From: an uncultured Prevotellaceae bacterium
GTDB taxonomy: Bacteria; Bacteroidota; Bacteroidia; Bacteroidales; Bacteroidaceae
Reading direction: 5' to 3'
Assembly (NCBI GenBank): GCA_947176895.1
Contig: CAMWSK010000014.1
Coordinates: 1-59,591, forward strand
Length of the DNA stretch: 59,591 nt
Each line of letters begins with the position of its first letter. Positions within the stretch are counted from its first letter, which is position 1. Positions 9,396 to 32,984 of this stretch are shown in pieces. The notes below the pieces were generated by a model. That model saw nothing but the letters and a program-made list of their open reading frames with translations. It did no database searches and had not been told where the DNA came from. The translations under genes were made by a program, and so were the position numbers.

Positions 9396-9579
9396 TCCCC
9401 GCCCCGTCATGTGGATGAAAAGAATGGATTATGTCCACTAAGATATAGACTTGGAGTATTGAGTTTCACATAGAGCACTATCTTGCTGCCTACAGGTTAG
9501 GCGCAATGCTGCGTGATACGATGCTGTTTGTGGTGGCACCCCCGAATGATAAAACTACAGTGTTGGGCATGGTTTTGCC

Positions 9580-9959: not shown

Positions 9960-10003
9960 TGGAGGATAACAAGGCTAATGCTGTGTTAAGAAATGAAATA
10001 AAT

Positions 10004-12393: not shown

Positions 12394-12412
12394 GTGCGGA
12401 ATTAAGTGTGAG

Positions 12413-13417: not shown

Positions 13418-13440
13418 GAATGAACGGAGTCCTTTAGAAT

Positions 13441-13997: not shown

Positions 13998-14292
13998 GAA
14001 AACTTTGCTTGATTTTAAGATAATTTTGTTGAAGTCTCTGGTAAATATAGAAAGCAGAAACTGGTTTAAGAAGGCAAGGGGGTCCTGATGTGCATGGACA
14101 AGCGATAAAGGAGAACTGAAGGTATAAGTGGTATAGTCCGCTAAGTTTGTGTTTGTCGATAGCATTGCGAGGATATCCCGAAATAGCGTGCATGGCCTAT
14201 AGCATAAATATGCTGTTTGTTAGTGCGAAGAATCTTTTTCAGGTGTATAAAATAAAGTATAAATCCAGATTCATATTTTCATTGGAATAGAA
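13998..14292 (+). other. Non-coding or decayed stretch between GT2 pseudogene and GT4
   Basis: About 295 bases with no intact gene. From 14141 one frame stays open for about 49 codons to a TAG at 14288 and reads as a hydrophobic then basic tail (IALRGYPEIACMAYSINMLF), which could be the last piece of a lost membrane protein. Nothing else recognisable was seen. Confidence 0.4.
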
Positions 14293-15501: not shown

Positions 15502-16565
15502 AGGTGGTGATCTTGTTTCCGCACCCGGTGGCGGGGCCTACGGGGGGGTATAAGGTAGCTATGGAGTATGCCAACCGCATGGTGGCTGACGGGCATGAAG
15601 TGCACATTGTCTATTCGGGTTCTATCTACTGGAGCCGGAAGACGGCGTGGCATAAGCTCACTTGCTGTGTGCGCTGGGTGGAACGTAAGGTGAGGGGGTA
15701 TTCGTGCCGGGGGTGGTTCCAGCTCGATGATAGGGTGCGCGAGCATTTCACGCTGTCGCTCTGTGAACGGCATGTGCCGATGGCCGATGTGTATGTGGCT
15801 ACCTCGCCTTACACGGCTTGGTATCTCAACCGCTATGCAACGGATGCACGTAAGTTCTATTTTATTCAAGGCTATGAGGACTGGGGGCCGGGGCTGCGGG
15901 CGATTCTTCACGACACTTATCACTACCCGATGCGGAAGATTGTGGTGGCCACATGGCTACAGCGGATGCTCAAGGAGGAGCATGGCGAGGATTCGGTTTT
16001 TGTGCCGAATGGTTTTGACTTCGGCAAGTTTCGTATCACTGTACCTGTGGCCGAAAAGGATTGTCTGCATGTGTCAATGCTCTATCACGATATGCCCGGC
16101 AAAGACTGCGCCATGGGGCTGCGGGCACTTACGAGGGTGAAGGAACACTACCCGCAGTTGCGAGCCACACTCTTTGGAGTGCCGGCCCGCCCCAATGGAC
16201 TGCCGGAGTGGATTGACTACTACCAGTGCCCTGATGATGAGCTTCACTTGCGTATCAATAATGAGGCTGCCATCTACATTGGCACGAGCCGCACCGAGGG
16301 CTGGGGCTTGACCGTTGGCGAGGCGATGATGTGTGGTCAGGCTGTGTGCTGCACCGACAATCCGGGCTACCGCGAGATGGCCACCGATGGTGAGACCGCC
16401 CTAGTGACACCTGTGGGCGACAGCGAGGCATTGGCAAGAAGTATGGAGCGGCTCATTGCCGACGACGCATTCCGCTGCCGCATAGCCGAAAATGGGCATA
16501 ACTTTATTCAGCATTTCACTTGGGAGGATTCTTACCGAAAGTTTAAAACGACTTTAGGATTATGA
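15498..16565 (+). CDS. Glycosyltransferase family 4, GT-B fold
   Basis: 355 residues. It opens MKVVILFPHPVAGPTGGYKV, with the TGGY loop encoded by a G7 run at 15542-15548, and has SRTEGWGLTVGEAMMCG (about 258-274) and DNPGYREMATDGETALVTP as the donor-binding C-terminal motifs of GT4. ATGA overlaps join it to both neighbours. GC content is higher than in the Wzy region, like the surrounding block 14293-20593, so this block may have arrived together. Confidence 0.83.
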   Translation: MKVVILFPHPVAGPTGGYKVAMEYANRMVADGHEVHIVYSGSIYWSRKTAWHKLTCCVRWVERKVRGYSCRGWFQLDDRVREHFTLSLCERHVPMADVYVATSPYTAWYLNRYATDARKFYFIQGYEDWGPGLRAILHDTYHYPMRKIVVATWLQRMLKEEHGEDSVFVPNGFDFGKFRITVPVAEKDCLHVSMLYHDMPGKDCAMGLRALTRVKEHYPQLRATLFGVPARPNGLPEWIDYYQCPDDELHLRINNEAAIYIGTSRTEGWGLTVGEAMMCGQAVCCTDNPGYREMATDGETALVTPVGDSEALARSMERLIADDAFRCRIAENGHNFIQHFTWEDSYRKFKTTLGL

Positions 16566-18400
16566 GATTAGCTACATTTGATATATTCGACACTACGCTA
16601 CTGCGACGGTGCGGTCGGCCTGAAGAGGTGTGGGAGCAGCTTGCCAATCGGCTTTTCGCTGAGGAGAGAGACCTCACCGAAGCATTTGTGGCATGGCGCA
16701 GGCAAGCAAAGGGAGATACTCTTGCGGCCATCTATGCCGGTATCGATGAGGCGTATGTCACCTTTTCTGGCAAAAGCGAAGAGGAGTTGATGCAAGCCGA
16801 GAAAGAGGAGGAAAGGGCGACACTTATTGTCAATCCTGAGATACGCAGCATCATTGAGCGTAAGCGCAAAGAAGGGTGGACGATTGCATTTGTGAGCGAC
16901 ATGTATCTTGACAGCCACTTTCTGCAGTCCGTACTCTCTGAGCAACAATGCATCAAAGAGGGTGAGCGTATATATGTCTCATGCGAGCATCGTGCACGCA
17001 AGGATGACGGAACCCTCTACGATGTGGTGCGCCGTGACTGCGCTCCCGTTGAGTGGGAGCACTATGGCGACAACTGGCGCAGCGATGTGGCTATGGCCCG
17101 GAAGAAAGGCATTCGTGCCATAGCCGTGACATCGGGCTTTAATGTTGCTGAGGCGGCATGCTTGCGTGTAGCTCCTCATCTTGCTGCGTTGTCAAGGTTA
17201 TTCCGCCTACAGCATCCGAGGGATGGATTTGCGGCATTCGCCGCCGACTTCGTGGTGCCAGCCTACTTGCCTTATGCGGCATTTGTGCTTACCGAAGCAC
17301 GCAGAATGGGCATCGCCAAGCTCTATTTCCTTTCACGAGACAGTTATGTGTTGCTTAAGGCTGCGCAAGCAATGCTTGGAGATACTCAAGGACCTGAACT
17401 ACATTATCTATTTGTGTCGCGTCGTTCGTTGCTCTTGCCCTACTTGTGGAACGAGGACGAGAAAGCCTATCTTGCAGCACGCGACCACAATACCATTGTG
17501 CGCTTAGACAGCGTGGACAAAATGTTGGTGCATCTTGGTACCACACGTGAAGAACTACGTGAGCGATACGGAATAGAATTCGCTTACACTCGTGTGAACA
17601 ATCTTGCTGAACAGGTGGACTTTCTGAAAAAGATATTTCACAGCGACTTCACTCCTTTATTACAGCAGCGTGCACAGGAGCAGCAAACATTGTTGCTGGA
17701 CTACTTCCGGCAAGAAGGATTGCTCGACGGTGTGCGATGCGCTGCTGTGGATGTGGGCTGGCTGGGGACATCGCGGCTGATGATCAATCATATTTTGCGC
17801 AGACAGGGTGTGCCAGACATACACTTCTTTTATTATGGTGTGCGTGGTGATGTGTTCCCGCCGTCGGCAGGTCGTTATACGGCATATTTCCAAGCCGGAG
17901 AACTCTCTACGGAAGCCACGGTGTTGTTGGAGCATTATTTCTCGGCCTCTCCTTATCCAACTACGGTGGGGTATCAACGAAATGAAGACGGGCAAGTGAT
18001 ACCGCAATTTAAAACAAAGAGCAGATTTGCACACACACCTGCAAGCAAAGCCAATGCGGAGGCTATGGAAAGCATGGCCGCCGACCTTCCCCACTGCGAC
18101 AAGGCTATGTTGCGACAATGGGCAAGAAGTGCCATCAGTTCCTTGATGTCCTCACACCTGGAAGTGGACATCACACCTCTTGTCCCGACAAGCGACTTTG
18201 ATGACAACACGCCTTTCGTAAAGAAACTGAATATTGCTGAACTGGTGAAGTTGCTCGTTCTTGGTGGCCATGTGACGGGGTTCGACTTGGGAAGCCTTCG
18301 GCTGACACTGCCTCTCTGTATGCTGGCGCCTGCTTGGAGACTCCATGAATCAACAGGACGGTTGCGTGGGTATCTGTATCGTCGGATATACAGACAATAA
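16562..18400 (+). CDS. HAD-superfamily protein of capsule loci (COG5610-like)
   Basis: 612 residues. The first ~220 form a HAD hydrolase: motif I TFDIFDTTLLRR (5-16, nucleophile Asp 7 and general acid Asp 10), motif II FVSDMYLD (about 116) and motif IV HYGDNWRSDVAMARKKG (about 163-179). The remaining ~390 residues have no motif I can name (SRDSYVLLKAAQAML, CAAVDVGWLGTSRL). Such proteins occur in polysaccharide loci; whether they dephosphorylate a sugar or lipid intermediate or transfer a group is not known. ATGA overlap with the upstream GT4. It is the last gene before a MITE-like insertion, which starts three bases after the stop. Confidence 0.72.
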   Translation: MRLATFDIFDTTLLRRCGRPEEVWEQLANRLFAEERDLTEAFVAWRRQAKGDTLAAIYAGIDEAYVTFSGKSEEELMQAEKEEERATLIVNPEIRSIIERKRKEGWTIAFVSDMYLDSHFLQSVLSEQQCIKEGERIYVSCEHRARKDDGTLYDVVRRDCAPVEWEHYGDNWRSDVAMARKKGIRAIAVTSGFNVAEAACLRVAPHLAALSRLFRLQHPRDGFAAFAADFVVPAYLPYAAFVLTEARRMGIAKLYFLSRDSYVLLKAAQAMLGDTQGPELHYLFVSRRSLLLPYLWNEDEKAYLAARDHNTIVRLDSVDKMLVHLGTTREELRERYGIEFAYTRVNNLAEQVDFLKKIFHSDFTPLLQQRAQEQQTLLLDYFRQEGLLDGVRCAAVDVGWLGTSRLMINHILRRQGVPDIHFFYYGVRGDVFPPSAGRYTAYFQAGELSTEATVLLEHYFSASPYPTTVGYQRNEDGQVIPQFKTKSRFAHTPASKANAEAMESMAADLPHCDKAMLRQWARSAISSLMSSHLEVDITPLVPTSDFDDNTPFVKKLNIAELVKLLVLGGHVTGFDLGSLRLTLPLCMLAPAWRLHESTGRLRGYLYRRIYRQ

Positions 18401-18402
18401 AT

Positions 18403-18415
18403 ATGGATAGAAGAC
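18403..18415. repeat. 13-bp direct repeat, left flank of MITE-like element
   Basis: ATGGATAGAAGAC, identical to 18706-18718. The two copies bracket the inverted-repeat element and are the likely target-site duplication. Confidence 0.8.
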
Positions 18416-18705
18416 ACGGCTCTTTCATTTAAAATCGCTTTGAATTTTCAAAGTTCGTGAGTAATTAAATACAGCATCGCACAGAAAACTGCAAATCACT
18501 GGAACATGTTTGCCAACTAAAGCCTATAAACGTGCGTCCAAAACTTGTGAACACGTGTTCACAAGTTCTGAACAGAGAATCTCCCCGTGACGTTTTGGCT
18601 TTTTAGATACAGGAACCCCAACTTTGTGGATGTGTCGAAGTTTACTTCCAACCACCTGCTACTCACGAACCTTGAAAATTCAAAGCGATTTTAAATAAAA
18701 GATCC
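18416..18705. mobile_element. MITE-like element with 46-bp terminal inverted repeats
   Basis: A 290 bp non-coding insertion. The left arm 18418-18463 and right arm 18660-18705 are inverted copies over 46 bases with only three mismatches (shared core ATTTAAAATCGCTTTGAATT). Identical 13 bp direct repeats lie directly outside. Near the centre is a perfect 26 bp palindrome (18542-18567, core GAACACGTGTTC). No open frame of note is inside, so it would be a non-autonomous element mobilised in trans. Long target duplications of 10-13 bp are known from IS4-group transposases, but the parent is not identifiable here. It occupies the only large gap between the HAD gene and the next glycosyltransferase. 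Confidence 0.75.
18542..18567. repeat. Perfect 26-bp palindrome inside the MITE-like element
   Basis: The sequence around core GAACACGTGTTC equals its own reverse complement over 26 bases. As RNA or single-stranded DNA it would form a strong hairpin and could act as a terminator-like or protein-binding element in the middle of the capsule operon. Confidence 0.85.
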
Positions 18706-18718
18706 ATGGATAGAAGAC
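18706..18718. repeat. 13-bp direct repeat, right flank of MITE-like element
   Basis: ATGGATAGAAGAC, second copy of the flanking duplication, 20 bases before the next start codon. Confidence 0.8.
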
Positions 18719-18737
18719 GTTTTAATCACTATAATTA

Positions 18738-19592
18738 ATGACAAAGATTGCAGCTATCATACTAAACTACAATTCGTCCGCCGACTGCCGTAAGTGCGTG
18801 TCGTATTTGAAGCACCAGCAGGGTGTGGAGCTGGAGATTGTGATTGTGGACAACTGCTCTCGCCCCGAGGAGGCTGATGCCGCCCGGATCCTGGCGTGGG
18901 AGCAGGGATGCACGTTTATTGCGGCTGATGCCAACCGTGGCTACAATGCGGGCAACAATGTGGGGTTGCGTCATGCCGCCGGACTTGGTTGCGAGTATGC
19001 CCTGATTGCGAATCCCGACATGGAGTTCCCACAGCCCGGCTATGTGGCCAGCCTTGCAGCCGAGATGCGGAAGTACCCCGACGTGGCTGTGGTGGGCAGT
19101 GACATCGTGACCCCAGAGGGCATTCACCAGAATCCCATGATGCGTGATGGTGATTGGCGCAACTCGTTCGGGTGGATTACGGCGTTTTTTAGGAAGAAAA
19201 AGGCCGACACTTACGATTTTATCGACAACTATCACACGACTCATCAATGCCACAAGGTGAGCGGATGCTGTTTGCTTTTGAGGATGAGTTTTATTCAGAG
19301 TATAGGATATTTCGACGAGCGTGTGTTTCTCTACTGCGAGGAGGCTATTCTTTCCCGGCAAGTGGAACGTTGTGGCATGACCATGCACTACATTGCCGAT
19401 GCTCAGGCGATACATGCACATGTGAAGAATGAGAAGGGTGATCCTGTGGCGCGGTTCAGACACTGGAAGCACTCACGATTTATTTTCATTGACAATTACA
19501 GTGACGACAGCCGTTGGGGCCGCATGATGGCAAAGCTATCGATGACGGCCTACGTGCTGACGATGACTATGCTTCTACGATTGAAGAAATAA
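18738..19592 (+). CDS. Glycosyltransferase family 2 (rhamnosyltransferase-like)
   Basis: 284 residues. N-terminal IAAIILNYNSSADCRKCV and IVIVDNCS, ANRGYNAGNNVGL and ALIANPDMEFP (DxD equivalent, about 92-102), then SGCCLLLRMSFIQSIGYFDERVFLYCEE are the pattern of the WcaE/RfbF-like GT2 group that often uses dTDP-rhamnose. The rfb genes upstream make that donor plausible, but specificity is not proven. Ends with a hydrophobic segment. Its TAA overlaps the next ATG by one base. Confidence 0.83.
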   Translation: MTKIAAIILNYNSSADCRKCVSYLKHQQGVELEIVIVDNCSRPEEADAARILAWEQGCTFIAADANRGYNAGNNVGLRHAAGLGCEYALIANPDMEFPQPGYVASLAAEMRKYPDVAVVGSDIVTPEGIHQNPMMRDGDWRNSFGWITAFFRKKKADTYDFIDNYHTTHQCHKVSGCCLLLRMSFIQSIGYFDERVFLYCEEAILSRQVERCGMTMHYIADAQAIHAHVKNEKGDPVARFRHWKHSRFIFIDNYSDDSRWGRMMAKLSMTAYVLTMTMLLRLKK

Positions 19593-20593
19593 TGGCTAAG
19601 AAAAGAGAAAGATATTTAGATGTTGCCAAGGGACTGGCGATTCTGTGCATCGTGCTCCTGCATGTGGAGAACGGTGTGATTCCGGATGGGCTGAACACCT
19701 TTATAGGGTCGTTCATGATAAGCATGTTTTTTGTAACCACTGGGTGGCTCGACGGCTATCGTAGCGAGCCGCTGAAGTTGAAGGAACTATGTCGCAAGCG
19801 GTGGAAGCAACTTGGAGTGCCCTATCTGTGGTGGACTGGCATGATACTGGCTTTCGACCTGATGTTATGGGCTGTGGGTTACTATGATGTCTACATGATA
19901 GGGCGAGAGATTTACAAGGCGCTTGTACTGCGCGGCATAGGCACGCTGTGGTTCCTTCCGGCGCTATTTGGCGGTGAGATAATATGGAATCTTGTACGCC
20001 GCCGTGGCTCGGCGATTGTTGGCTTGCTTGCCGTGGCGGCTACGCTGGCGGCGCAATATGCCTATTTTTCTGCTTTCAGTGGAAAGATCGACACCCTAAC
20101 GCGGATAATTGAGGCTCCATTTCACACGCTTCACAACATGCTTGCCGCTTGGACGAGCATTGCGGCCGGCTTCCTTTTCCGTCGCCTCTTTGTGGCACTG
20201 AAGATGGAGAGAATGGCAAGATGGCACTACCTTGTGGCCGGAATGGTAGTGACGGCTGTCGGATATTGGTGTGCCAACTATTGGCCGGTGCCTATGCTTT
20301 GGGGCATGGCTGCGCCGGTGGTTGGACCTATAGGCATACTGCTGCTTGCCATGGCGGCTGATGGTCTGAAAGTTACTAACTATCTCAATTACTGGGGGGG
20401 TAACTCGCTTGTGCTTATGGTGACTCATTATTCGATCGTGATTGTGCTCTTTGAGATGCTCAACAAGGCGATTCTGCATGAGCCTTACATTCAAGGCTAC
20501 CCGGCATTTGCTTATTTTTTTGCCATAATGATTGTGGAATATTTTATCTGCGAGTTGATAAATAGAAAATGCCCGCGCTTGCTCGGCAGATAG
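19592..20593 (+). CDS. Acyltransferase-3 family membrane protein
   Basis: 333 residues, about ten hydrophobic helices. The N-terminal RYLDVAKGLAILCIVLLHV (about 7-25) contains the family's key histidine after the first helix, and GTLWFLPALFGGEI matches the second conserved region. These proteins O-acetylate or otherwise acylate surface glycans using acyl donors from the cytoplasm. A G7 run at 20394-20400 encodes YWGGNSLVL near the C terminus, in frame here. ATG 19592 is preferred to a longer frame reaching back into the GT2 gene. Confidence 0.85.
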   Translation: MAKKRERYLDVAKGLAILCIVLLHVENGVIPDGLNTFIGSFMISMFFVTTGWLDGYRSEPLKLKELCRKRWKQLGVPYLWWTGMILAFDLMLWAVGYYDVYMIGREIYKALVLRGIGTLWFLPALFGGEIIWNLVRRRGSAIVGLLAVAATLAAQYAYFSAFSGKIDTLTRIIEAPFHTLHNMLAAWTSIAAGFLFRRLFVALKMERMARWHYLVAGMVVTAVGYWCANYWPVPMLWGMAAPVVGPIGILLLAMAADGLKVTNYLNYWGGNSLVLMVTHYSIVIVLFEMLNKAILHEPYIQGYPAFAYFFAIMIVEYFICELINRKCPRLLGR

Positions 20594-20642
20594 TGGCGAG
20601 AGGACATTGCTTAGGTGGCAAAACGAAAATTCGATTGTAAGA

Positions 20643-21866
20643 ATGAACAGATTATTTTATTGGTTAGGAGAATTGTTCTCGCTGCACAACTACACGCTGC
20701 GCAACTACACGGTGTTCCTGTTGGTGCTATTCTGCATCCAGTATATCCCCATAGAGAGCCGTGCGGGTGCAAGTTGGGTGAAGGTGATGACAATGGTGAT
20801 TACCGCGTTCGTGTTAATGAAATATATAGTAGTTAATAAAGCCCTAATTATTTCGCTAATATATGCTGTATGGATTATACTAACAGCATATGGGCTTCAT
20901 CCTGCAACTTTTAGGGCTTCGACGGTGATATATTTCTTTATGTTTCTCACCACATTTGTTGCGTTTTATACATTTGTGTGGAATTACCATGTGATATCAA
21001 TAGATTTCTTCATCAAGGTGCTGCGGCAGTTCATCTTTGTACTTGTGGGTGTCCTTGTGGCACAGCAGATATGCATTATAGCAGGATTCAAGCTGATGCC
21101 GATTCTCAATCTGTGTCAAGTGCTCGATCGCGGAATTGGTGCCAACTCCCTCACTTTTGAGCCCTCTACGCTAGGTCGACTGATAAATATATTATTCTAT
21201 GCATATCTTAAATGTTATGAATATCGACGTGGAGAGAAAGTTAAGATTACCGAAGTCTTAAATAAAGAACACAAGTGGGTAACTATTGCATTTTTATGGG
21301 CTGTGCTTACTATGGGTAGTGGAACAGCTTTTTTTGCCACAGCAATAACATCGTTGTATTTTATGAGAGGCTGGTACTTCTTGTATTCGATTCCAATTTT
21401 TTTTGCGGCGTATTTTGCAATGGATTATTATGGAAATGAATCATTCCGCAGAGTTCAAACTACAACACAAGCCACAATGACCGGAGATGCGAATCTTGTA
21501 ATGGAAACAGATGGAAGCGCAGCAATGCGAATAAAGCCTATGCTTAATACATTGACATTAGATTTATCGGATTCAGATGTATGGATAGGAAGAGGGTGCG
21601 ATTCGGCGAAAGGTCTATATTCTGACGATAGATATATAGTGAATATAGGTGATTATGGGTTTATCGCTTTTATAATATGCGTTATTCTGACATTTTCTTG
21701 TGTAATAAATTTTTGGTCATTGCCAACCATAATGATTTTGGTAGGAATAGCGGGATTTGCCGGGGGAAATGTTTCATATATTTGGGGACTATTAATGATT
21801 TTTACTTGTGTAAAATATTTTAAGCATCATAGATATGAATATCAATCTTCTAACAGCGAGGATTAA
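20643..21866 (+). CDS. wzy: Wzy-like polysaccharide polymerase
   Basis: 407 residues, with about ten predicted membrane helices and a large soluble loop between about 270 and 330. The NSLTFEPSTLGRL segment (about 179) resembles the conserved E-P-S motif of O-antigen ligase/polymerase-like proteins. It is the only polymerase candidate in the locus and pairs with the single Wzx. Sequence conservation in this class is poor, so the call rests on topology and context. ATG 20643 gives a positively charged start; a longer frame from 20607 adds 12 polar residues. DNA from here to about 23600 is clearly AT-richer than upstream. Confidence 0.75.
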   Translation: MNRLFYWLGELFSLHNYTLRNYTVFLLVLFCIQYIPIESRAGASWVKVMTMVITAFVLMKYIVVNKALIISLIYAVWIILTAYGLHPATFRASTVIYFFMFLTTFVAFYTFVWNYHVISIDFFIKVLRQFIFVLVGVLVAQQICIIAGFKLMPILNLCQVLDRGIGANSLTFEPSTLGRLINILFYAYLKCYEYRRGEKVKITEVLNKEHKWVTIAFLWAVLTMGSGTAFFATAITSLYFMRGWYFLYSIPIFFAAYFAMDYYGNESFRRVQTTTQATMTGDANLVMETDGSAAMRIKPMLNTLTLDLSDSDVWIGRGCDSAKGLYSDDRYIVNIGDYGFIAFIICVILTFSCVINFWSLPTIMILVGIAGFAGGNVSYIWGLLMIFTCVKYFKHHRYEYQSSNSED

Positions 21867-22437
21867 GTGTTTGTTATCAATACCATTCTACGTGATTTTC
21901 TTAACTCACAACAAGAAAGGATTTCTTGAAGAAGAACTCAGACGATGGGAAGAAGTACTACCTGTACAGAAGTATAAAAGCACATTTATTGCTTTTATAA
22001 GAATGTTTGCTCTTTTTCGTGAATATCGCAATGTGTTTTTCTTTAGGTGTGGGATTATCGGGAAATTAGTGAAAAAGATAGTTCCTTGTGCAAGAGATGT
22101 AAATTTCATAGTAGAGTCGAGAAATGTAAATAAAGGGCTGGTGCTTCAACATGGATATTCATGCATGCTTTGGCCTGAAAAGATTGGGAATAATTGCCAA
22201 ATTTGGCATCATGTGACAATAGGAAGGGCGTCAGACAAAGGTAATAGACCAAACATAGGAGATAATGTGAAGATATGTACAGGTGCGATAGTTCTCGGTG
22301 ATATAACAATTGGAGATAATGTTACGATAGCAGCAGGGGCCGTTGTTGTAAAGAGTGTTCCCGATAATTGTGTTGTAGCAGGAAATCCTGCTAGAATAAA
22401 GAAGAAGAACGGAGTAAAGGTTGATATTTCACTTTAG
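21835..22437 (+). CDS. Hexapeptide-repeat O-acetyltransferase (CysE-like)
   Basis: 200 residues. A helical N-terminal half is followed by a left-handed beta-helix: GLVLQHGYSCMLWPEKIGNNCQIWHHVTIG (catalytic His in IWHHVTIG, about 124-131), NIGDNVKICTGAIVLGDITIGDNV and a closing GNPARI. Resembles serine acetyltransferase-type enzymes, but in this setting an O-acetyl transfer to a sugar is more likely. The start lies 32 bases inside the end of the polymerase gene. Confidence 0.8.
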   Translation: MNINLLTARIKCLLSIPFYVIFLTHNKKGFLEEELRRWEEVLPVQKYKSTFIAFIRMFALFREYRNVFFFRCGIIGKLVKKIVPCARDVNFIVESRNVNKGLVLQHGYSCMLWPEKIGNNCQIWHHVTIGRASDKGNRPNIGDNVKICTGAIVLGDITIGDNVTIAAGAVVVKSVPDNCVVAGNPARIKKKNGVKVDISL

Positions 22438-22443
22438 TAATTG

Positions 22444-23599
22444 ATGAAAATACTGTTTTTATTAAGTTCAACATCTGTTTTTGGAGGATCAACGAAGGCA
22501 TTTCTTACGTTATGTTCTGAATTGGTCAAAGATAGATCGATTGAGGTTTTGGTAGTATGCCCAAACCGTGGAGCCGGATATGAGGCTCTATCCCAAATGG
22601 GGGGGGGTGAAGGTGATAGCTGTGTCTATGCGCACACACATATATCCTGAATATAATAGCATTAATAACATACTGCTATTCCCTTTGAAGTTGTTATATC
22701 ATTTTGTTGTTAATCACAAAGCTTTTCAACAAATTTGTACTATCAGTAAATACTATAAACCCGACGTTGTTTACACCAATGTGAGCGTTATAGGTGTTGG
22801 GCAGAAAGTGGCTGAAAAGATTAAGGTACCTCATATATATCATATAAGAGAGTATCAGTATTTGGATTTTGGTATGCGTATAATACCTTCATCTTCTACA
22901 TTTAAGAGAATGTTACAGAATCAATATTCAATATGTATAACGAAAGGAATTCAATCTCATTTTGGACTGAATAATCAGAATTCGGTGGTCATTTATGATG
23001 GCGTTCGTAGTGAGGATGTAGCTTTTTTCGATAAGAGAAAAGAAAAATACTTTTTGTTTGTGGGTAGATTAGACAAAACCAAAGGCGTTAGAATTGTTCT
23101 TGAGGCATTTGCAAAATCGCGAATCAGAACTCATACATTAAAGATTGCTGGAGCCTCTTTGTCGAAAAATGAAGATAATCAACTTAAAGAACTTGTTAAA
23201 GAGTACGGAATAGAAGATCGGGTTGAATTTTTAGGAGTAGTAAATGATGTAGATAGCATTATGCGAAAGGCAACTGCATTGGTGATGGCATCTCAATTTG
23301 AGGGTTTTGGTTTGGTTACAGCAGAGGCTATGTTCAATGGTTGCCTTGTTATTGGCAGAAATGTTGCTGGAACAAAGGAACAATTTGATAATGGCCTAAA
23401 ATGGACTGGGGATGAAATCGGAATGAGGTGGAACTCGGTTGATGAATTGAGGCAGTGTATGAATAATGTTGTAGAGAATGGAATTGAAAGTTACTATCCG
23501 TATATTGAACGTGGAATCAAGGCTTGTAAACATTATTCGATTGAGCAAAATGCATTGAAGATAAAAGAATACTTAAAATTCGTTATTGGCAATCAATAA
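22444..23599 (+). pseudogene. Glycosyltransferase family 4, frameshifted at a G9 tract (possible phase-off state)
   Basis: The first part (MKILFLLSSTSVFGGSTKAF ... AGYEALSQMG, from ATG 22444) is in one frame; the rest (KVIAVSMRTHIYPEYNS ... to 23599) is in another. The break falls exactly in nine Gs at 22599-22607. With eight Gs the reading is SQMGGVKVIAVSM and a full-length GT4 of about 384 residues results. The C-terminal motifs are intact (FVGRLDKTKGV, SQFEGFGLVTAEAMFNG), and no other lesion is seen, so the gene is either phase-variable and off, recently inactivated, or a homopolymer sequencing error. As it stands the first frame stops at 22650. Confidence 0.85.
22599..22607. repeat. G9 homopolymer at the frameshift site
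   Basis: Nine Gs directly at the frame break of the GT4 gene. Eight Gs restore the frame. Confidence 0.9.
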
Positions 23600-23620
23600 T
23601 AAAAACAATAAATTACTGAG

Positions 23621-24589
23621 ATGGATGTGACTGTGGCTGTCTGCATGTGGAATGCAGAAAAGACAATTGAGAGCACTCTGCAGTGCCTCTTGAATCAGAC
23701 GATGCAGGACTTTAACCTGCTCATTGTGGACGATTGCAGCACTGATGGCTCGGTGGAGTGCGTGGAGCGTTTCTTTGTGAAGCATCCTAGGCAATATGAG
23801 GTGGTGCGCCAACTGGAGAATCAGGGCATTGCCTACGAGCGTAATTTTGCACTGCACCATGCGAGGACGAAATACCTGATTTTTATTGATTCTGATGATT
23901 TCCCTTTGCCGCAACTGGTTGAGAAAGAATATGCTGCAATCAGTTGCGACCAAGAACTGACCGCAGTCAGTTCTTGGTCGCAATTTGCTGACGCAAATTG
24001 CAATCGCATGCGTGGAGGGTTGTTCATTGGTGACACCACTAAGGAGGAATTTCGCAAGCGTGCCGAGGCGGACAAGCGCATTTTCCTGCCTATTCAGACG
24101 CTCTTTGTGCGCGAGGATGCTATCAGGGTGGGTGGATTCAGACTCGACGGTTTTCCCGAAGGCAAGCCGCGCTATCGCGATTTCTGTGAGGATCTTGATT
24201 TGTGGACGCGCATGAGCGACCTTTATGTCGAGGGAAAATATATTATCGTGCTTCCCGAGGTGCTTTATCTCTATAGGAAAACGGATGGGTTGTCGTCAAA
24301 TCACTTCAATATGATTATTAAAATGGAATTTGTGAAGGTGAACGTGCGCCGGAGGCGCAAAGGACTGCCCGAACTTACGTTCATGGAGTATTATGATTCG
24401 TTGAAACCCGAAGAGCTTGCACGGCTGAAGAAGGATTCCAGTGCAGCTGACTGTCTGCGCAACGGCGTGTTTTACGTGCGCGACGGCAAGTTGCTGAAGG
24501 GTTTTCGCCTTATTGCCGAGAGTGTATGGAATAATCCCACCTACATTTTCGACAAAATAATGGCAAATTCCGGCTTGGTGAAAAAATAA
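23621..24589 (+). CDS. Glycosyltransferase family 2
   Basis: 322 residues. N-terminal VTVAVCMWNAEKTIESTLQC, LLIVDDCSTDGS (about 32-43) and LIFIDSDDFPLP (DxD, about 87-98) give the GT-A nucleotide-binding set; FCEDLDLWTRMS (about 191) is the usual ED catalytic motif. Between them, residues about 107-130 (SCDQELTAVSSWSQFADANC) are encoded by two perfect adjacent palindromes at 23944-24001 and look foreign to the fold, although the frame stays open. Function is transfer of an unknown sugar in repeat-unit assembly. Confidence 0.85.
   Translation: MDVTVAVCMWNAEKTIESTLQCLLNQTMQDFNLLIVDDCSTDGSVECVERFFVKHPRQYEVVRQLENQGIAYERNFALHHARTKYLIFIDSDDFPLPQLVEKEYAAISCDQELTAVSSWSQFADANCNRMRGGLFIGDTTKEEFRKRAEADKRIFLPIQTLFVREDAIRVGGFRLDGFPEGKPRYRDFCEDLDLWTRMSDLYVEGKYIIVLPEVLYLYRKTDGLSSNHFNMIIKMEFVKVNVRRRRKGLPELTFMEYYDSLKPEELARLKKDSSAADCLRNGVFYVRDGKLLKGFRLIAESVWNNPTYIFDKIMANSGLVKK
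23944..24001. repeat. Two adjacent perfect inverted repeats within a coding region
   Basis: First hairpin: 18-base arms 23944-23961 and 23966-23983 (TTGCGACCAAGAACTGAC and its exact complement) around a 4-base loop. Second: 9-base arms 23980-23988 (GCAATTTGC) and 23993-24001 around TGAC, sharing bases with the first. Both lie in frame in the GT2 gene. Confidence 0.9.
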
Positions 24590-24638
24590 TAAACAACACA
24601 TTTAGTTGAGTTCTCAAAAACAGTAGACACAAATAAGG

Positions 24639-25970
24639 ATGAGTGAAATTTCGGCAAAGCATATCACTGAGGTGATAGGACTGCTTAATGAGAAGGCTGA
24701 TTATGCTGTGCTCCGTAACTTTGAGGGGCTTCCTGACAAGAACAAGAGCCGCGATATTGATATTATTATTACGTTGCGCAGCTACCGTGCGGTGAAGGAT
24801 GAGCTTGTGAGGCTTATCGACTCCATGGGATGGAAAATTGTGACTTATCTGCATAGCGACAGGTTAATTACCTATGTGTGCGCCAAGCAGAGTGGGGAGG
24901 TTACGGAGCTGGTGCAGTGGGACTTCTTTGTGAATACTTCGGTGTGGGGTATTCTGCTGATGGATGCCGGTGAGTTCCTTGCCCACAAGCAATTTAATGG
25001 CTTCTTATATTATGTGGGTGTGGAGTGCCAGTTTCTTGACAAGTATCTCTATAACCGTGCCGTGGGCAGCGCGTTTCCTAAGAAGTATCAATGGATGCGC
25101 GATGAAGCCGAGAAGAGCGACTTCGTGAGGGAGAAGGTGCAGAGTCTCTTTGGCTTGGCAAGTCTTGAGGAGTGCGACCGCAAACGCCGACCCTTGCTCG
25201 TTCTACGTGCTGTGGGGGTCAACCTGCTACGCCGTCCGTTGGGTTTTATAGTGGGCGTGGTGTGTTTCCTGTGGACGTTTGTGAGGAACTATGTGCGGTC
25301 GTGCACGGGGTTCTCAGTGGGATTCACTGGACCCGACGGGTCGGGGAAGACTACGGTGATTGACCTAATGATTAACCGTCTGGGCGATGTGTTCCGAACG
25401 GCTCATGCCTATATGCACTTCCGACCTGCGCTCTTTGGCAACTTGGGTGAGGTGGCTCACTCAGCGGGTGTGAAGAAGACGGTGGACCGCAACTATAGCG
25501 ATCCGCACCGTGGTGGTCGCACAGGCTGTGCAAGTTCGCTGGCGCGGCTTCTTTACTACTCGGTGGATTATGTGCTGGGCTATTTCCTGCGTGTGAAGAT
25601 GGTGACGCGCATCACAAGGCTTGTGATTTTCGACCGCTATTACACCGACATCATTTGTGACAGCCGCCGTTCGCGCATCTATCTTCCTGTAAGACTTTTA
25701 TATTGGTGGGGACGATTGTTGATTCCTTCACTCGATTACAACATTTTGCTCACAGCCGATAGCGACACCATCCTGCATCGCAAACGTGAGCTTGACCGAG
25801 AAGGCATCAACATCATCAACCGCAAGATTGACTATCTTGCTTCGAAGCCCGGCTACTACAAGATTCTCAACACGGGCACTCCTGAGCAGGCTGTGGCAAG
25901 GATACTCGCCACCATTTTCGATGTCCAGCACCGCAAGAACCTGAAACGACTGGAATATAGACAAAAATAA
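24639..25970 (+). CDS. Nucleotidyltransferase-like / thymidylate-kinase-like fusion protein
   Basis: 443 residues. The N-terminal ~100 (YAVLRNFEGLPDKNKSRDIDIIIT) resemble a nucleotidyltransferase fold with a D-x-D pair. The C-terminal half is a P-loop kinase: GPDGSGKTTVI (about 230-240), VIFDRYYTDII (DRY as in thymidylate kinase) and a lid-like DREGINIINRKIDY. Such fusions recur in Bacteroidetes capsule loci; substrate unknown. It may make a phosphorylated sugar or nucleotide precursor. Flanked by two GT2 genes on the same strand. Confidence 0.7.
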   Translation: MSEISAKHITEVIGLLNEKADYAVLRNFEGLPDKNKSRDIDIIITLRSYRAVKDELVRLIDSMGWKIVTYLHSDRLITYVCAKQSGEVTELVQWDFFVNTSVWGILLMDAGEFLAHKQFNGFLYYVGVECQFLDKYLYNRAVGSAFPKKYQWMRDEAEKSDFVREKVQSLFGLASLEECDRKRRPLLVLRAVGVNLLRRPLGFIVGVVCFLWTFVRNYVRSCTGFSVGFTGPDGSGKTTVIDLMINRLGDVFRTAHAYMHFRPALFGNLGEVAHSAGVKKTVDRNYSDPHRGGRTGCASSLARLLYYSVDYVLGYFLRVKMVTRITRLVIFDRYYTDIICDSRRSRIYLPVRLLYWWGRLLIPSLDYNILLTADSDTILHRKRELDREGINIINRKIDYLASKPGYYKILNTGTPEQAVARILATIFDVQHRKNLKRLEYRQK

Positions 25971-25990
25971 AATGTTGTGCATCATCAATT

Positions 25991-27001
25991 ATGAATAATC
26001 CATTTTTTTCAATAGTCATTCCAGTATACAACGGATTGACCCATGGTTTGCCTAAATGTCTTGACAGCATTTGGAAACAACCTCTTGATACATCGATATA
26101 TGAGGTGATATGTGTAGACGACTGCAGCACCGATGGCACACGGGCCTGGCTGCACACTCAGGCTGCACTCAGGCAAAATATGCGAGTGTTAGAGAATGAG
26201 ATAAATATCCGTCAAGGAGGGGGGAGGAACAAGGGATTTCGTGTAGCGAGAGGCAAATATATAGTTCTTATAGATCAGGACGATTATTATCATCCGGGGG
26301 CAATATCTAAAGTATATGAACACTTGCGGGAATCCGACTTGGATGTGCTGATAGTGGATTGCGCCTATGAGCGCCCTGGGAAGCCGAGCAACAAGTTACA
26401 ACACAATTTTCCACATCGCGAGGTGATGACAGGTGATGAGATAATTTTGAAAAATTCTATTCCGTATGCTCCTTGGAAATTCATCTTTTTGCATTCGTTG
26501 ATTATTGACAACAATCTGTTCTTTGATGAGAATGAGCGCATTGAAGATATTGATTGGGTTCATAGGCTTGTACATAGTGCAAAAAAAGTGCAGTATCAGC
26601 CGATTTTGTTTATTCATTATCTGAAGGGGGACACATCAACCACAATGACATCATTTAAGTCACCGGTAACCACTTATTCCTCGATGCGATGTGGACGAAG
26701 GTTGTATTTATTGGTAACCTATGACTTTGTTGATAGTTGTGATGAATTGAAGCGTGCTATGGAGAATCTTGGGGAGAATGTGTTCAGACTCAGTTTGCGC
26801 AACTTGCTCACATGCAAGGATTCATTGAAGAACAAGCGAAAAGCGATTTGTGAAATCATTGTGCCGCACAGCAAGAGGACTACGGCACTTACGAAAATAG
26901 CAGTAGCTATGCCGATGGCTTTTTGCATTGTGAGCAATATTACAGCTACATTCTTGCCTTGGTTTATCATTTTGCGCAGGAAATGGAAATATAGAAATTA
27001 A
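25991..27001 (+). CDS. Glycosyltransferase family 2
   Basis: 336 residues. PFFSIVIPVYNGLTHGLPKC, VICVDDCSTDGT (about 38-49), RNKGFRVARGKYIVLIDQDD (DxD equivalent LIDQDD) and ERIEDIDWVHRL (the ED motif) define a GT2 transferase with GT-A fold. The C terminus ends in a hydrophobic segment and basic tail, perhaps a membrane anchor. A G6 run at 26219-26224 encodes part of RQGGGRN. An internally deleted acyltransferase relic follows seven bases after the stop. Confidence 0.85.
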   Translation: MNNPFFSIVIPVYNGLTHGLPKCLDSIWKQPLDTSIYEVICVDDCSTDGTRAWLHTQAALRQNMRVLENEINIRQGGGRNKGFRVARGKYIVLIDQDDYYHPGAISKVYEHLRESDLDVLIVDCAYERPGKPSNKLQHNFPHREVMTGDEIILKNSIPYAPWKFIFLHSLIIDNNLFFDENERIEDIDWVHRLVHSAKKVQYQPILFIHYLKGDTSTTMTSFKSPVTTYSSMRCGRRLYLLVTYDFVDSCDELKRAMENLGENVFRLSLRNLLTCKDSLKNKRKAICEIIVPHSKRTTALTKIAVAMPMAFCIVSNITATFLPWFIILRRKWKYRN

Positions 27002-27007
27002 GAAGTG

Positions 27008-27225
27008 ATGGAAAAGAAGATTGGATATATTGATGCGATGCGCGGGCTGGCGATGCTGCTCGTGATGGTGGGGAGTGGTTTCGAGACAATCCCAATCCCG
27101 TGATAGAATATTTGCTTGCTATGGCGGTGGCGGCGGTGATGATAGCGGCATCGCTGCTTGTGGGGCGCATCATCCGCCTAAGTCCCACGCTTGCACATTG
27201 GCTGCTGGCAGCAAAGAAATCATAA
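27008..27225 (+). pseudogene. Acyltransferase-3 gene with large internal deletion
   Basis: The first 22 codons (MEKKIGYIDAMRGLAMLLVM) match the start of the intact acyltransferase at 28498 (RLEYIDAMRGLSMVLVV). Directly after ATGGTGGGG the sequence jumps to the last ~45 codons (EWFRDNPNPVIEY ... GRIIRLSPTLAHWLLAAKK), again matching the end of that paralogue, but one frame off. ATGGTGGG occurs in the expected sequence at both sides of the lost ~800 bp (the VMVGH and MVGEWF codons), so the deletion ran through microhomology. Non-functional. Confidence 0.85.
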
Positions 27226-27273
27226 ACACCAAGTCTATATAACATTTTATAAAGCCTCAATTGAATAAAACTT

Positions 27274-28266
27274 ATGAGAATTGTAAGATTAACATATTTA
27301 TGTCGAAAATCCTTTGAAAGGGCTGCTATTGTAATTAAAAATTTTTGGATTCGACGAAAGCATTATTCTTGGAAGTATGCTACTTATGACCTCTTGGAGT
27401 GGATTGGTTTTTATAGCCGCAGCTCTCGGCTGCAATTAATCGGCATCAAAAAAAAGCAATTGTGGCTTGATGGTTATATTGAGCAAAATTATGGTAGCAT
27501 AATAGAACGTTTTAGGAATTTGCGCGAAAGTGGAACTATTGCAAAGGATTTTAATATTTGGGTATTTTGGGCACAGGGCGAAGAGAATATGCCGCCTATC
27601 GTGAAAGCTTGTTACAGACAATTGTGTGCAAATAATAAGGGAGTGGTGAAGTTACTGGATTTGAAAAATGTAGGACAATATGTGTCACTTCCTGGATTTG
27701 TATTTGAAAAGTTGCGAGAAGGTAAGTTGCTCTATGCGCATTTCTCAGATATATTGCGGCACTCGCTTATTGCCAAATACGGAGGGTTTTGGATTGATGC
27801 CACATGTTGGACCGGTGGCGCATTCCCTGAAGAACTAAGACAAGGTGCGTTTATTTCTCCTCACAATGAAGAAGATGGAACGTATTGGTGTAGCTATGCA
27901 CTTGGAAGTGGACTGACAGGAAGTGTCACATTCTCTTTTGTTAAAGCTATGCTAATAGCTGTCTGTGAGAAAGAAGAAGTTTGGCCAGACTATCTGTTTC
28001 AGGATAGATTGCTTGATTATGCCCATAGAAAAGTGGGGGCATCTCGTGAAGCTATTAATGCAACACCTGCAAATAACACAAGGAGATTTTTGCTTTATCC
28101 GATGCTAAACAAGCCATTTGATGAAGCGTTTTACAATGATTTGACTTCGACCGACTGGTTGTTTAAGTTATCATATAAATCGAATTTCAATACAGAGCAG
28201 AATGGGAAGGAAACGTTCTACGGCAAAATGATAAAAGGGACAATTAATGTCAGACACAAGGGCTAA
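27274..28266 (+). CDS. Capsular polysaccharide synthesis glycosyltransferase (Caps_synth, GT32-like)
   Basis: 330 residues. FNIWVFWAQGEENMPPIVKACYR (about 93-115) and FSDILRHSLIAKYGGFWIDATCW (about 156-178) are the two hallmark blocks of the Caps_synth/GT32-like family; the GGFWIDAT aspartate is the equivalent of the DxD metal ligand. The N-terminal ~90 residues are basic and less conserved. The gene is AT-rich like the polymerase region. The start of another acyltransferase relic overlaps its 3' end. Confidence 0.8.
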   Translation: MRIVRLTYLCRKSFERAAIVIKNFWIRRKHYSWKYATYDLLEWIGFYSRSSRLQLIGIKKKQLWLDGYIEQNYGSIIERFRNLRESGTIAKDFNIWVFWAQGEENMPPIVKACYRQLCANNKGVVKLLDLKNVGQYVSLPGFVFEKLREGKLLYAHFSDILRHSLIAKYGGFWIDATCWTGGAFPEELRQGAFISPHNEEDGTYWCSYALGSGLTGSVTFSFVKAMLIAVCEKEEVWPDYLFQDRLLDYAHRKVGASREAINATPANNTRRFLLYPMLNKPFDEAFYNDLTSTDWLFKLSYKSNFNTEQNGKETFYGKMIKGTINVRHKG

Positions 28267-28387
28267 ATACATTGATATTACAAAAGGCTTAGTGTCTTTT
28301 TTTGGGGGGGTGCTAGTCATTCTTACAAATGTATATGTTAAGTCAAATTTGTGCAATGTTTTTTTCAAAACATTCACATGCTTTTGA
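28247..28387 (+). pseudogene. Acyltransferase-3 relic (N-terminal end only)
   Basis: A short frame MSDTRAKYIDITKGLVSFFG overlaps the end of the Caps_synth gene by 20 bases. KYIDITKGL is the classic beginning of acyltransferase-3 proteins, but the first membrane helix that should follow is disrupted at a run TTTTTTTGGGGGGG (G7 at 28304-28310) and the frame ends at TGA 28385-28387 after 46 codons. Nothing else of the gene survives before the intact paralogue at 28498. Confidence 0.6.
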
Positions 28388-28497
28388 AGGATTCGCAAAC
28401 GGAAGTAAACATACAAAAGAATTACAAGATATAAACAAACAAAAAATCTTTGCCCCAATCCCTCTGATTAATTCAAGATGAAGTAAAAATATAAGAT

Positions 28498-29529
28498 ATG
28501 ATTAAGAGACTTGAATACATTGATGCCATGCGAGGACTATCCATGGTTTTGGTCGTAGTAGGCCATGTTTTGTTTTTTGCATTTGAAGATGCGGGAAATG
28601 TTTTATTCAGAGTACTAAATGCAGAAATAGAGGTTCCACTTTTCTTTATGATAAGTGGATATCTAATGAAAGTACCGGAACATAGGTATGTATCATTTTT
28701 CCAGAAGAAAGCATTTTTGTTGTGTGTTCCGGCAGCGATATTCATGGCGGTCTATGTATGGATAAGTGGCTATGACTATCTTTCTGCATGGATTGATAGC
28801 TTTAAATATGGGTATTGGTTTACTTTCTCGTTATTTGAGTTTATTGTATTTTATGTTGTATTAAAATATGCTGCAAGAAAGATAAAGTTGGGATTCTATG
28901 CTGAGCAATTATTGCTATTTGTTATTTCTGTAGTAGTCTTGTTTGCCTCTGCCAGGTGTAAGCGTCATGAGTATAACTATGCTATCATTCCTTTACTTGG
29001 CTTGACACAATTCAAATCCTTTATTTATTTTGTATTTGGTGCGATATTGGCAGAGTGCAAAAGTCTTGGTAATAAATTGATACATATCAAGTTAAATTCT
29101 TATTCGGGGGGGTGGTTTTTTATCTTTTTTATTGTGTCCCATATTTACACGTATAAAGATGGTGGCATAAATTATATTGGTTCCTTTACACTATGGTTTG
29201 CGCTTATTACGATTTCCGGTTTGTTGGCATTATTGTGTGGATTCAAGCAGTATGTATCATGGAGTACGTCTTGGGTTGGCAAGAGGTTACAGATGGTCGG
29301 TCGTTATACGCTTGACATATATTTTATACATTATTTCTTTTTACCACGCAATTTGAATATGGTGGGAGAGTGGTTTAAGGCTAATCCAAATCCTTTGATA
29401 GAATATGTGTTTGCCTTGTTAATAGCAGTAGTGCTGATAGCGGTGTCGTTATTCGTAGGACGAATAATCCGTTTGAGTCCAATATTGGCTCACTGGCTAT
29501 TAGCTGAAAATAAGAATTACAAGAAATGA
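28498..29529 (+). CDS. Acyltransferase-3 family membrane protein
   Basis: 343 residues, about ten membrane helices. RLEYIDAMRGLSMVLVVVGHVLFFAF (about 4-29) contains the conserved histidine, FFMISGYLMK (about 51-60) the second motif, and YTLDIYFIHYFF near the end the C-terminal helix pair. It probably O-acetylates the polysaccharide or its lipid-linked unit. G7 at 29106-29112 encodes SGGWFF, in frame here. The stop overlaps the next start by ATGA. Two damaged relatives lie directly upstream. Confidence 0.87.
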   Translation: MIKRLEYIDAMRGLSMVLVVVGHVLFFAFEDAGNVLFRVLNAEIEVPLFFMISGYLMKVPEHRYVSFFQKKAFLLCVPAAIFMAVYVWISGYDYLSAWIDSFKYGYWFTFSLFEFIVFYVVLKYAARKIKLGFYAEQLLLFVISVVVLFASARCKRHEYNYAIIPLLGLTQFKSFIYFVFGAILAECKSLGNKLIHIKLNSYSGGWFFIFFIVSHIYTYKDGGINYIGSFTLWFALITISGLLALLCGFKQYVSWSTSWVGKRLQMVGRYTLDIYFIHYFFLPRNLNMVGEWFKANPNPLIEYVFALLIAVVLIAVSLFVGRIIRLSPILAHWLLAENKNYKK

Positions 29530-30773
29530 ACAAGCAAAAAATCTTTGTCTCCGCTTATGCTTGCGAGCCGGGACTTGGCAGCGAGATAGGTGTCGGTTGG
29601 CATTGGGTGTTGGAGATGTCCAAATATTTTGAATTGTGGGTGCTGACCCGTGAGAGCAATCGGCACACCATAGAGCCGTGGATTGCAGAGCATCCGGAGT
29701 ATGCCGGAATCCATTTCCTTTATTATGATTGGCCTAAGTGGGCACGGTTCTGGAAAAAAGGTTTGCGTGGAGTGCGCACCTATTATAACCTGTGGCAGAT
29801 ATGCGTCAATGGCATCGTGAAACGTACCATGCAAGAAAACGACATCCGGATTTTTCATCATCTGACTTATGGTAATGTGCTTTGGAGGGTAAGTAGTTAT
29901 GGGCAGAAACAGTTCTTTGTTTGGGGACCTGTCGGCGGCTTGGAGACCATTCCCGAAAGCTATTCACGTCATTATGACAGGAAGTCAAGACTGATTGAAC
30001 GTGTACGCAGAACGACGGCATCTATGGCGGCTCTGAATCGCGGATTTAAGAAGAGATGCAAACGGGCGGACTTGATTTTATGTAAGACGGAGATAACGCG
30101 CGACTTTATTCCACATAAATACAGAGCCAAGTCGATTTTGTTTACCGATGTGGCGGCAGAAGTTGCGGATTCTACAGGTCTTTCAGATGAAAATAAAGCA
30201 CCGAGAGAGGACAACATTACCCGATTTGTAACGGTAGGGCGTTTGGACGCATGGCGCGGATTTGATTTGGCGATTGAGGCTTGTGCCATTGCGTCAAGAG
30301 AGAATCCCGATATTCATCTTACTGTTATTGGTGACGGGGCGGATAAGGATAGGTTGAAGAAGATTATTAAGGACAGGAATTTAGACCGGTTTGTCACGCT
30401 TGCGGGGAAAGTGCCGATGGAGAAATACAAGGATATGATGCAGGCAGCGGACGTGGTGGTGAACGCCTCTTTGAAAGAGGGTGCCGTTACCGTGTCTTTT
30501 GACAGCATGTCGATGGGAAAACCTTTGATATGCCTTGATACCACCGGGTATACACGTTATTTTAATGATGATTATGCGATTCTGATAGAGAACACGAGTC
30601 GGGAAGAAGTGATCCGCCGGCTTGCGGATGGTATGCTACGTCTTACAGATGCAGAACTGCGTGGTCAAATGGGATATAAGGCACATGCCGCGTCAAAGAA
30701 CTTCTCTTGGGAGCATCATGGTGAAGAGATTCGTGATGCAATCATCGCGGCTTATAATCATTCGTCTGAATAA
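29526..30773 (+). CDS. Glycosyltransferase family 4, GT-B fold
   Basis: 415 residues. FVSAYACEPGLGSEIGVGW (about 7-25) is the N-terminal glycine-rich acceptor domain loop; FVTVGRLDAWRGFDLAIEAC (about 233-252), LTVIGDGADKDRLKK and VVVNASLKEGAVTVSFDSMSMG give the C-terminal donor-binding Rossmann domain. Base composition returns to that of the conserved genome from here on, hinting at a recombination border near 29520. Confidence 0.85.
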   Translation: MNKQKIFVSAYACEPGLGSEIGVGWHWVLEMSKYFELWVLTRESNRHTIEPWIAEHPEYAGIHFLYYDWPKWARFWKKGLRGVRTYYNLWQICVNGIVKRTMQENDIRIFHHLTYGNVLWRVSSYGQKQFFVWGPVGGLETIPESYSRHYDRKSRLIERVRRTTASMAALNRGFKKRCKRADLILCKTEITRDFIPHKYRAKSILFTDVAAEVADSTGLSDENKAPREDNITRFVTVGRLDAWRGFDLAIEACAIASRENPDIHLTVIGDGADKDRLKKIIKDRNLDRFVTLAGKVPMEKYKDMMQAADVVVNASLKEGAVTVSFDSMSMGKPLICLDTTGYTRYFNDDYAILIENTSREEVIRRLADGMLRLTDAELRGQMGYKAHAASKNFSWEHHGEEIRDAIIAAYNHSSE

Positions 30774-30776
30774 ATC

Positions 30777-32974: not shown

Positions 32975-32984
32975 TATAAATTTT

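What the first reader, a model, noticed from the sequence alone, without database searches (positions are those of the whole stretch)
22599..22607. Glycosyltransferase frameshifted exactly at a G9 tract: candidate contingency gene
The only lesion in this GT4 gene is at nine Gs; eight restore the full frame with the expected residues. Both halves otherwise look under selection. This would change the repeat unit of the capsule, giving antigenic variants rather than a simple on/off.
Basis: partly seen in the sequence, partly recalled or inferred. Interest (0 to 1): 0.72.

Follow-up and report, generated by a model that had tools for sequence, protein, structure and literature searches.

The report
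Poly-G switch in capsule glycosyltransferase gene
A sugar-transferase gene in a predicted capsule gene cluster is split exactly at a run of nine Gs while a relative's copy with a shorter run is intact, so the run likely acts as a random, reversible on/off switch that would vary the cell's sugar coat.

Summary
A GT4 gene (22444-23599) changes reading frame at a G9 run (22599-22607). Its halves align gap-free to an intact orthologue (MAG SUG1506) whose run is shorter, and both look constrained (dN/dS 0.09 and 0.21). The new evidence is in the wider locus. SUG1506's capsule contig (27.5 kb) carries six G runs of 8-10, all coding-strand and inside genes, against 0.37 expected after synonymous-codon shuffling (0 of 2000 reach six). 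One, a G10, splits an acyltransferase exactly at the run; the window's intact homologue has a G7 run at the same site. Twenty comparable regions of the genus (380 kb) hold one such run, intergenic. Neither genome shows an overall excess of G runs. Best reading: a slipped-strand contingency gene, now likely OFF, in a multi-run capsule locus that probably moved between distant Bacteroidales. Poly-G switching is classical in Campylobacter; the Bacteroides literature I saw describes DNA inversion. Reversible switching is not shown (no reads available), and whether OFF alters or removes the capsule is unknown.

The parts
22599..22607 (+). G9 run at which the reading frame changes
   Evidence: sequence; length difference against the intact orthologue
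22444..22650 (+). 5' half of the GT4 gene, 68 codons then stop
   Evidence: 94% identical to the relative over 51 codons before the run
22568..23599 (+). 3' half of the GT4 gene in another frame; homologous from the run onward
   Evidence: PF00534 1e-28; 88% identical to the relative over 329 codons
2694..5090 (+). Wzc-like polysaccharide kinase with a G9 run at 2897-2905, frame intact
15542..15548 (+). G7 run in the GT4 gene 15498-16565, frame intact; the relative has G6 here
20394..20400 (+). G7 run in the Acyl_transf_3 gene 19514-20593, frame intact; the relative has no run here
29106..29112 (+). G7 run in the intact Acyl_transf_3 gene 28498-29529; its homologue in SUG1506 is split at a G10 run at the same place
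28304..28310 (+). G7 run between genes 27274-28266 and 28498-29529
704..34055 (+). predicted capsule locus: PF00953 transferase, Poly_export, Wzc-like kinase, rmlD, flippase, GT2 and GT4 enzymes, Caps_synth, acyltransferases

Best explanation
The G9 run lies inside a family-4 glycosyltransferase gene of a predicted capsule locus and splits it into two frames, and it likely works as a contingency switch in which replication slippage would lengthen or shorten the run and so turn the enzyme on or off at random. Shown: the frame change sits at the run; a relative with a shorter run has the gene whole; the aligned halves carry no other indel or stop; the relative's capsule locus is rich in coding-strand G runs, one of which splits an acyltransferase. 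Inferred: that slippage is the cause, that it reverses in living cells, and that the state sampled here is OFF. Predicted: the 68-residue 5' product and the N-terminally shortened 3' product are inactive, because the model of the intact relative places the run between helix 44-50 and strand 55-59 of the N-terminal domain, so the 3' product lacks the first two strands and two helices. The consequence would be a changed or missing polysaccharide, which might alter phage receptors or antigens. Several genes of the locus carry runs, so combinations of states are possible.
For: Frame break exactly at the run, no other indel between the halves and the intact orthologue. dN/dS 0.089 and 0.206, with seven neighbours at 0.061-0.183; no excess of changes on the window branch (5 against 7, 27 unplaced). 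The relative's 27.5-kb capsule contig has six G runs of 8-10, all coding-strand and in genes, 0.37 expected, 0 of 2000 shuffles; six of the 36 distinct runs of that genome in 1.1% of it, Poisson 1.4e-6 to 3.8e-6. A gap in its run-length spectrum (one run of six, none of seven, six of eight to ten) and no C run above five. A second gene, an acyltransferase, split exactly at a G10 there; the homologue in the window is whole with a G7 run at the same place. Close orthologue proteins elsewhere begin or end at the run: P0002, P0004, P0005, P0123. P0002, identical to the window's 3' half, is listed with a longest contig of 12,327 bases, so another assembly record has the split form too.
Against: No population data: reversible change was not seen. 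The own genome has no overall excess of G runs, and the window locus alone is only moderately enriched. Four other alignable run sites are runs of 7 or more in only one of the two genomes, so runs are not well conserved one by one. Some runs sit where the protein family has Gly residues anyway (GT2 motif at R19140; L045). The C half has the highest dN/dS of the nine pieces. The protein ends of P0004, P0005 and P0123 may come from contig edges or other lesions; their DNA was not seen. A very young pseudogene would look the same.
Confidence: 0.62

Rival explanations
1. A recent, essentially one-way loss: the run is a slippage-prone site by chance, one slip inactivated the gene, and it is a young pseudogene that is not selected for switching.
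For: One lesion only, at the most slippery site of the gene; runs turn over between the two genomes; no overall excess of G runs in the genome.
Against: The excess of coding-strand runs in the relative's locus beyond protein and codon usage (0 of 2000), the second gene split at its run, and the run-associated ends of close orthologue proteins are not expected from one chance loss.
Confidence: 0.22
2. A sequencing or assembly error: the true run is shorter and the gene is intact.
For: Homopolymers are error-prone, the genome is a draft of 53 contigs at 88% completeness, and contig ends here carry suspicious long runs (C20 at 75-94; C30).
Against: The protein database holds the same split form on a contig of at most 12,327 bases, so not the window's 59,591-base contig, though it may come from the same reads. 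Of the G or C runs of 7 or more in the window's capsule genes, only this one breaks a frame; the other G9, in the Wzc-like gene, does not.
Confidence: 0.09
3. The gene is whole in function: ribosomes or RNA polymerase slip at the run and make some full-length enzyme from the split gene.
For: Homopolymers are slippery for polymerases and ribosomes in general; the paper I saw says this of A/T runs (PMC3711429, passages).
Against: The intact relative needs no frame change, so it is not a conserved programmed site. No stimulatory element was sought or seen. It could coexist with DNA slippage as leakiness.
Confidence: 0.07

Closest known systems
Campylobacter jejuni poly-G/poly-C contingency loci of capsule, lipooligosaccharide and flagellar modification (PMC4965091, abstract and passages)
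   Same: G or C runs of seven or more inside reading frames of surface-glycan enzymes; frame class decides full-length or truncated product; several run-bearing genes in one genome.
   Different: Switching proven there by reporters and repeat sizing; the species is AT-rich, so runs stand out genome-wide. Here only the locus is enriched, in a different phylum, with no population data.
Frameshift variation of capsule O-acyltransferases and transferases in other bacteria, e.g. a pneumococcal wciG frameshift (PMC11934437, search listing and start of abstract only); meningococcal siaD and others are recalled, from no call
   Same: A frameshift in one capsule enzyme gene changes the polysaccharide.
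   Different: Different phyla; effect on the polysaccharide known there, unknown here.
Bacteroides fragilis polysaccharide acetyltransferase frameshift in a run of four Cs (PMC3090145, passages)
   Same: Bacteroidales polysaccharide locus; frameshift in a homopolymer; the authors suggest slippage could vary the polysaccharide.
   Different: One strain-level difference in a short run of four Cs; no multi-run locus described in the passages I saw.
Bacteroides invertible-promoter capsule switches (PMC11868660, passages)
   Same: Random variation of capsule expression in the same order.
   Different: Works by site-specific DNA inversion of promoters of whole operons, not by slippage inside single genes.
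HepE of Anabaena and other GT4 enzymes of GT-B fold (4xsu)
   Same: Fold of the enzyme (E 2e-21, TM 0.73, 20% identity).
   Different: Substrate and linkage of the window's enzyme unknown.

Membership tests
Slipped-strand (SSR) contingency locus | Pure repeat tract inside the reading frame whose length sets the frame | tested here: met
Slipped-strand (SSR) contingency locus | Intact and broken states at the same tract in related strains | tested here: met
   window split, SUG1506 intact with a shorter run; the two are different species, not strains of one
Slipped-strand (SSR) contingency locus | Tracts more frequent than protein and codon usage predict | tested here: met
   SUG1506 locus 0 of 2000 shuffles; window locus 7 of 2000 at G>=7, 72 of 2000 at G>=8; not met genome-wide
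Slipped-strand (SSR) contingency locus | Reversible, high-frequency length change within a clone | not testable with these tools
   no reads or colonies
Slipped-strand (SSR) contingency locus | Gene otherwise under purifying selection | tested here: met
   dN/dS 0.089 and 0.206; branch counts 5 and 7, 27 unplaced
GT4 glycosyltransferase, GT-B fold | Glycos_transf_1 domain and GT-B fold | tested here: met
   PF00534 1e-28 on the 3' half; model of the intact relative, pLDDT 94.7, matches HepE
Bacteroides invertible-promoter capsule switch | Inverted repeats flanking a promoter upstream of the operon, with a recombinase | tested here: inconclusive
   three stretches scanned: no close pair in 13400-14320, only weak pairs in 1-2700, but a 49-nt inverted repeat with 196-nt spacer at 18415-18708 inside the locus; promoter and recombinase not looked for

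The most novel reading that the evidence does not exclude
Some Bacteroidales carry a horizontally mobile capsule cassette with a multi-gene poly-G phasome: several transferase and acyltransferase genes, each with its own G run, giving combinatorial capsule variants by slippage in a group known for DNA inversion.
Probability: 0.43. Interest if true: 0.72.

Novelty: new member of a known kind. Interest (0 to 1): 0.57.

Why it matters
If true, some Bacteroidales vary their capsule gene by gene through homopolymer slippage, as Campylobacter does, besides or instead of promoter inversion. Clonal cells would then differ in capsule structure, and perhaps in phage sensitivity and immune recognition, in ways that searches for inversions miss. 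It is directly testable in existing metagenome reads by counting run lengths. It also warns that such split genes in metagenome assemblies should not be written off at once as pseudogenes or errors.

Tried and rejected
Genome-wide excess of G runs: rejected. 37 distinct G or C runs of 8 or more in 2.42 Mb against about 48-65 predicted from base composition.

A genus-wide habit: rejected. Twenty regions round GT4 homologues (20 of the 23 non-own loci; one region only 4.5 kb; 380,333 bases together) hold one run of 8 or more, intergenic. For the three loci not widened (L076-L078) the held 3-4 kb have none. The 139 genus genomes differ widely in G9 counts, and the listed places include long runs at contig starts (places listed for some genomes only), so these counts were not used as evidence.

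More orthologue DNA was sought: genus, 139 genomes, family, 151 and 399 sampled genomes, the relative's genus, 5 genomes, one viral-contig scan, one genome-contig scan, which gave L054. No further orthologue above about 45% identity came up, so the DNA of P0004, P0005 and P0123 was never seen; their tract state is inferred from protein ends.

Late protein starts: 2 of the 3 closest non-own proteins against 4 of 116 others, Fisher p 0.006 (one search had one cell off by one). Post hoc, tiny numbers, best 120 of 435 hits only.

Other frame breaks at runs in the own genome: ORF pairs near C13:6416 and C43:10803 looked suspicious but read as gene boundaries. The G8 at C16:39915 sits at the start of a hexapeptide-transferase frame; state ambiguous.

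Literature: eight searches. None listed a Bacteroidales poly-G contingency gene as far as titles and abstract starts show; one search was swamped by plant names, and most subscription papers are not held. PMC2831843 was searched for Bacteroid- and related words, none found.

Full report
Observation. The window reads G9 at 22599-22607. From ATG 22444 the frame gives 52 residues of a glycosyltransferase N terminus, then 16 more residues and a stop at 22648-22650. The body of the enzyme is open in another frame, 22556-23596, and matches Glycos_transf_1 at 1e-28. The closest relative with DNA, L054 (JAQXTJ010000190.1, MAG Bacteroidales bacterium SUG1506), carries one uninterrupted gene with a shorter run at the same place. 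Codon alignments of the two halves, made separately, have no gaps, and the DNA alignment at the site differs in length at the run.

Setting. The gene lies in a predicted capsule locus on the + strand, 704-34055: a PF00953 transferase, Poly_export, a Wzc-like kinase, rmlD, a flippase (PF13440), several GT2 and GT4 enzymes, Caps_synth, two Acyl_transf_3 genes and a hexapeptide transferase. The genes at 20607 and 24639 had no family hit; I take them as polymerase and flippase candidates by position only. Gene order from 18738 to 27001 is the same in SUG1506. That block is 86-87% identical in DNA, while rpoB of the two genomes is 73% identical over 3,262 aligned bases. The block has therefore probably moved between distant lineages.

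Constraint. Window against SUG1506, the N half has dN/dS 0.089 (51 codons) and the C half 0.206 (329 codons). Seven neighbouring genes lie between 0.061 and 0.183, so the C half is the highest but far from neutral. With P0004 and P0005 as outgroups, 5 amino acid changes of the C half fall on the window branch and 7 on the SUG1506 branch; 27 could not be placed. There is no sign of decay, though a very young pseudogene would look the same.

States in public assemblies. Among proteins like the C half (435 at E<=1e-60, best 120 listed), the four closest are P0002 (330 aa, identical to the window over its length, longest contig 12,327 bases), P0003 (384 aa, intact, 5 members), P0004 (324 aa, starting at the first Met after the run) and P0005 (339 aa, starting MGGVK at the run itself). 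Of 121 proteins checked, 7 start late: P0002, P0004, P0005 and four more distant ones, two of these on contigs under 1.6 kb. The N half finds one short protein, P0123, 55 aa, 84% identical, ending ...QMGGG at the run, on a 1,514-base contig; an alignment query found only the same one. With the flank seen in the window and in L054, that ending would fit a longer run followed by a stop, but a contig edge is as possible.

The wider locus. The relative's capsule contig gives the strongest new evidence. Its 27.5 kb hold six G runs of 8 to 10, all on the coding strand and all inside genes: two Acyl_transf_3 genes, two GT4 genes (one the orthologue in question), one GT2 and one Caps_synth gene. Shuffling synonymous codons, which keeps every protein and the codon usage, gives 0.37 on average and never six in 2000 trials (at G>=7, 2 of 2000 reach six; at G>=9, 2 seen and 14 of 2000 reach it). 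From I count 36 distinct runs in that genome of about 2.5 Mb; six in 1.1% of it has a Poisson chance of 1.4e-6, or 3.8e-6 pooled. The G-run spectrum of the locus has a gap: 60 runs of four, 9 of five, 1 of six, none of seven, then 4, 1 and 1 of eight, nine and ten, with no C run above five. A and T runs, for comparison, fall off smoothly to eight. In the window locus the G counts are 56 of four, 18 of five, 2 of six, 4 of seven, 2 of nine, again with no C run above five; shuffles reach the observed count in 7 of 2000 for G>=7, 72 of 2000 for G>=8 and 13 of 2000 for G>=9.

A second broken gene. In SUG1506 an acyltransferase is split exactly at its G10: the 255-residue and 143-residue frames both match Acyl_transf_3 (the second at 26.7 bits, under the curated cut-off of 31) and match the intact window acyltransferase 28498-29529 at 60% and 66%. 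The window gene has a G7 run at the same place in the protein. Two genes of this locus type, each split exactly at its run in one genome and whole in the other, is the pattern a contingency system predicts. Against this, four other alignable run sites are runs of 7 or more in only one of the two genomes, so runs turn over.

Limits of the pattern. The own genome is not enriched in G runs overall (37 distinct, about 48-65 predicted). Twenty regions of the genus, 380 kb, have one run, intergenic. The feature belongs to this locus type, not to the genus. The own genome has a second polysaccharide locus on contig C16 (flippase, Wzy_C, GT8, GT2, GT4) with a G8 and a G9 run in two hexapeptide-transferase frames; the G9 is in frame and the G8 is ambiguous. 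Coding-strand runs of the own genome also lie in genes that are not of this kind, for example a TamB protein and a kinase-FGE protein, a Na/Ca exchanger and a 2-hydroxyacid dehydrogenase.

How it likely works. Replication slippage would change the run length. In one frame class the full enzyme is made; in the others a short peptide, perhaps with an N-terminally shortened protein from GTG 22607 or a later start. The model of the intact relative (pLDDT 94.7; closest fold HepE 4xsu) places the run between helix 44-50 and strand 55-59, so the shortened protein lacks the first two strands and helices and is probably inactive.

Comparison. G or C runs of seven or more in reading frames of surface-glycan enzymes are the classical switch of Campylobacter jejuni (PMC4965091, abstract and passages). 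For Bacteroides a recent review speaks of inversion (PMC11868660, passages). One B. fragilis paper reports a frameshift in a run of four Cs in a polysaccharide acetyltransferase and suggests slippage (PMC3090145, passages). Eight searches of the held library listed no Bacteroidales poly-G contingency gene in titles or abstract starts. I call it a new member of a known kind, in a group where the kind seems undescribed in what I could search. The defining test, reversible change within a clone, could not be run.

Noticed in passing
window 18415-18708: 49-nt inverted repeat arms (92% complementary) with a 196-nt spacer in the gap before the GT2 gene 18738, with the direct repeat ATGGATAGAAGAC just outside each end; single copy in the own genome, and the gap between open frames in SUG1506 is only about 45 nt. 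A MITE-like insertion or a candidate invertible element.
   Followed up: partly
window 75-94: C20 run near the start of the contig; several genus genomes also show long G or C runs at contig starts, so it may be an assembly or sequencing artefact.
   Followed up: no
L136 9915-9922 and 12196-12204 (own genome, contig C16): A second polysaccharide locus has a G8 and a G9 run in two hexapeptide-transferase frames on the coding strand.
   Followed up: partly
window 18738-27001 against L054: The capsule block is 86-87% identical in DNA to that of a genome whose rpoB is only 73% identical, which suggests horizontal transfer of the block.
   Followed up: partly
L045 1386-1393: A GT4 gene of another genus of the family has a G8 run at its N-terminal Gly-Gly loop, in frame.
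   Followed up: no
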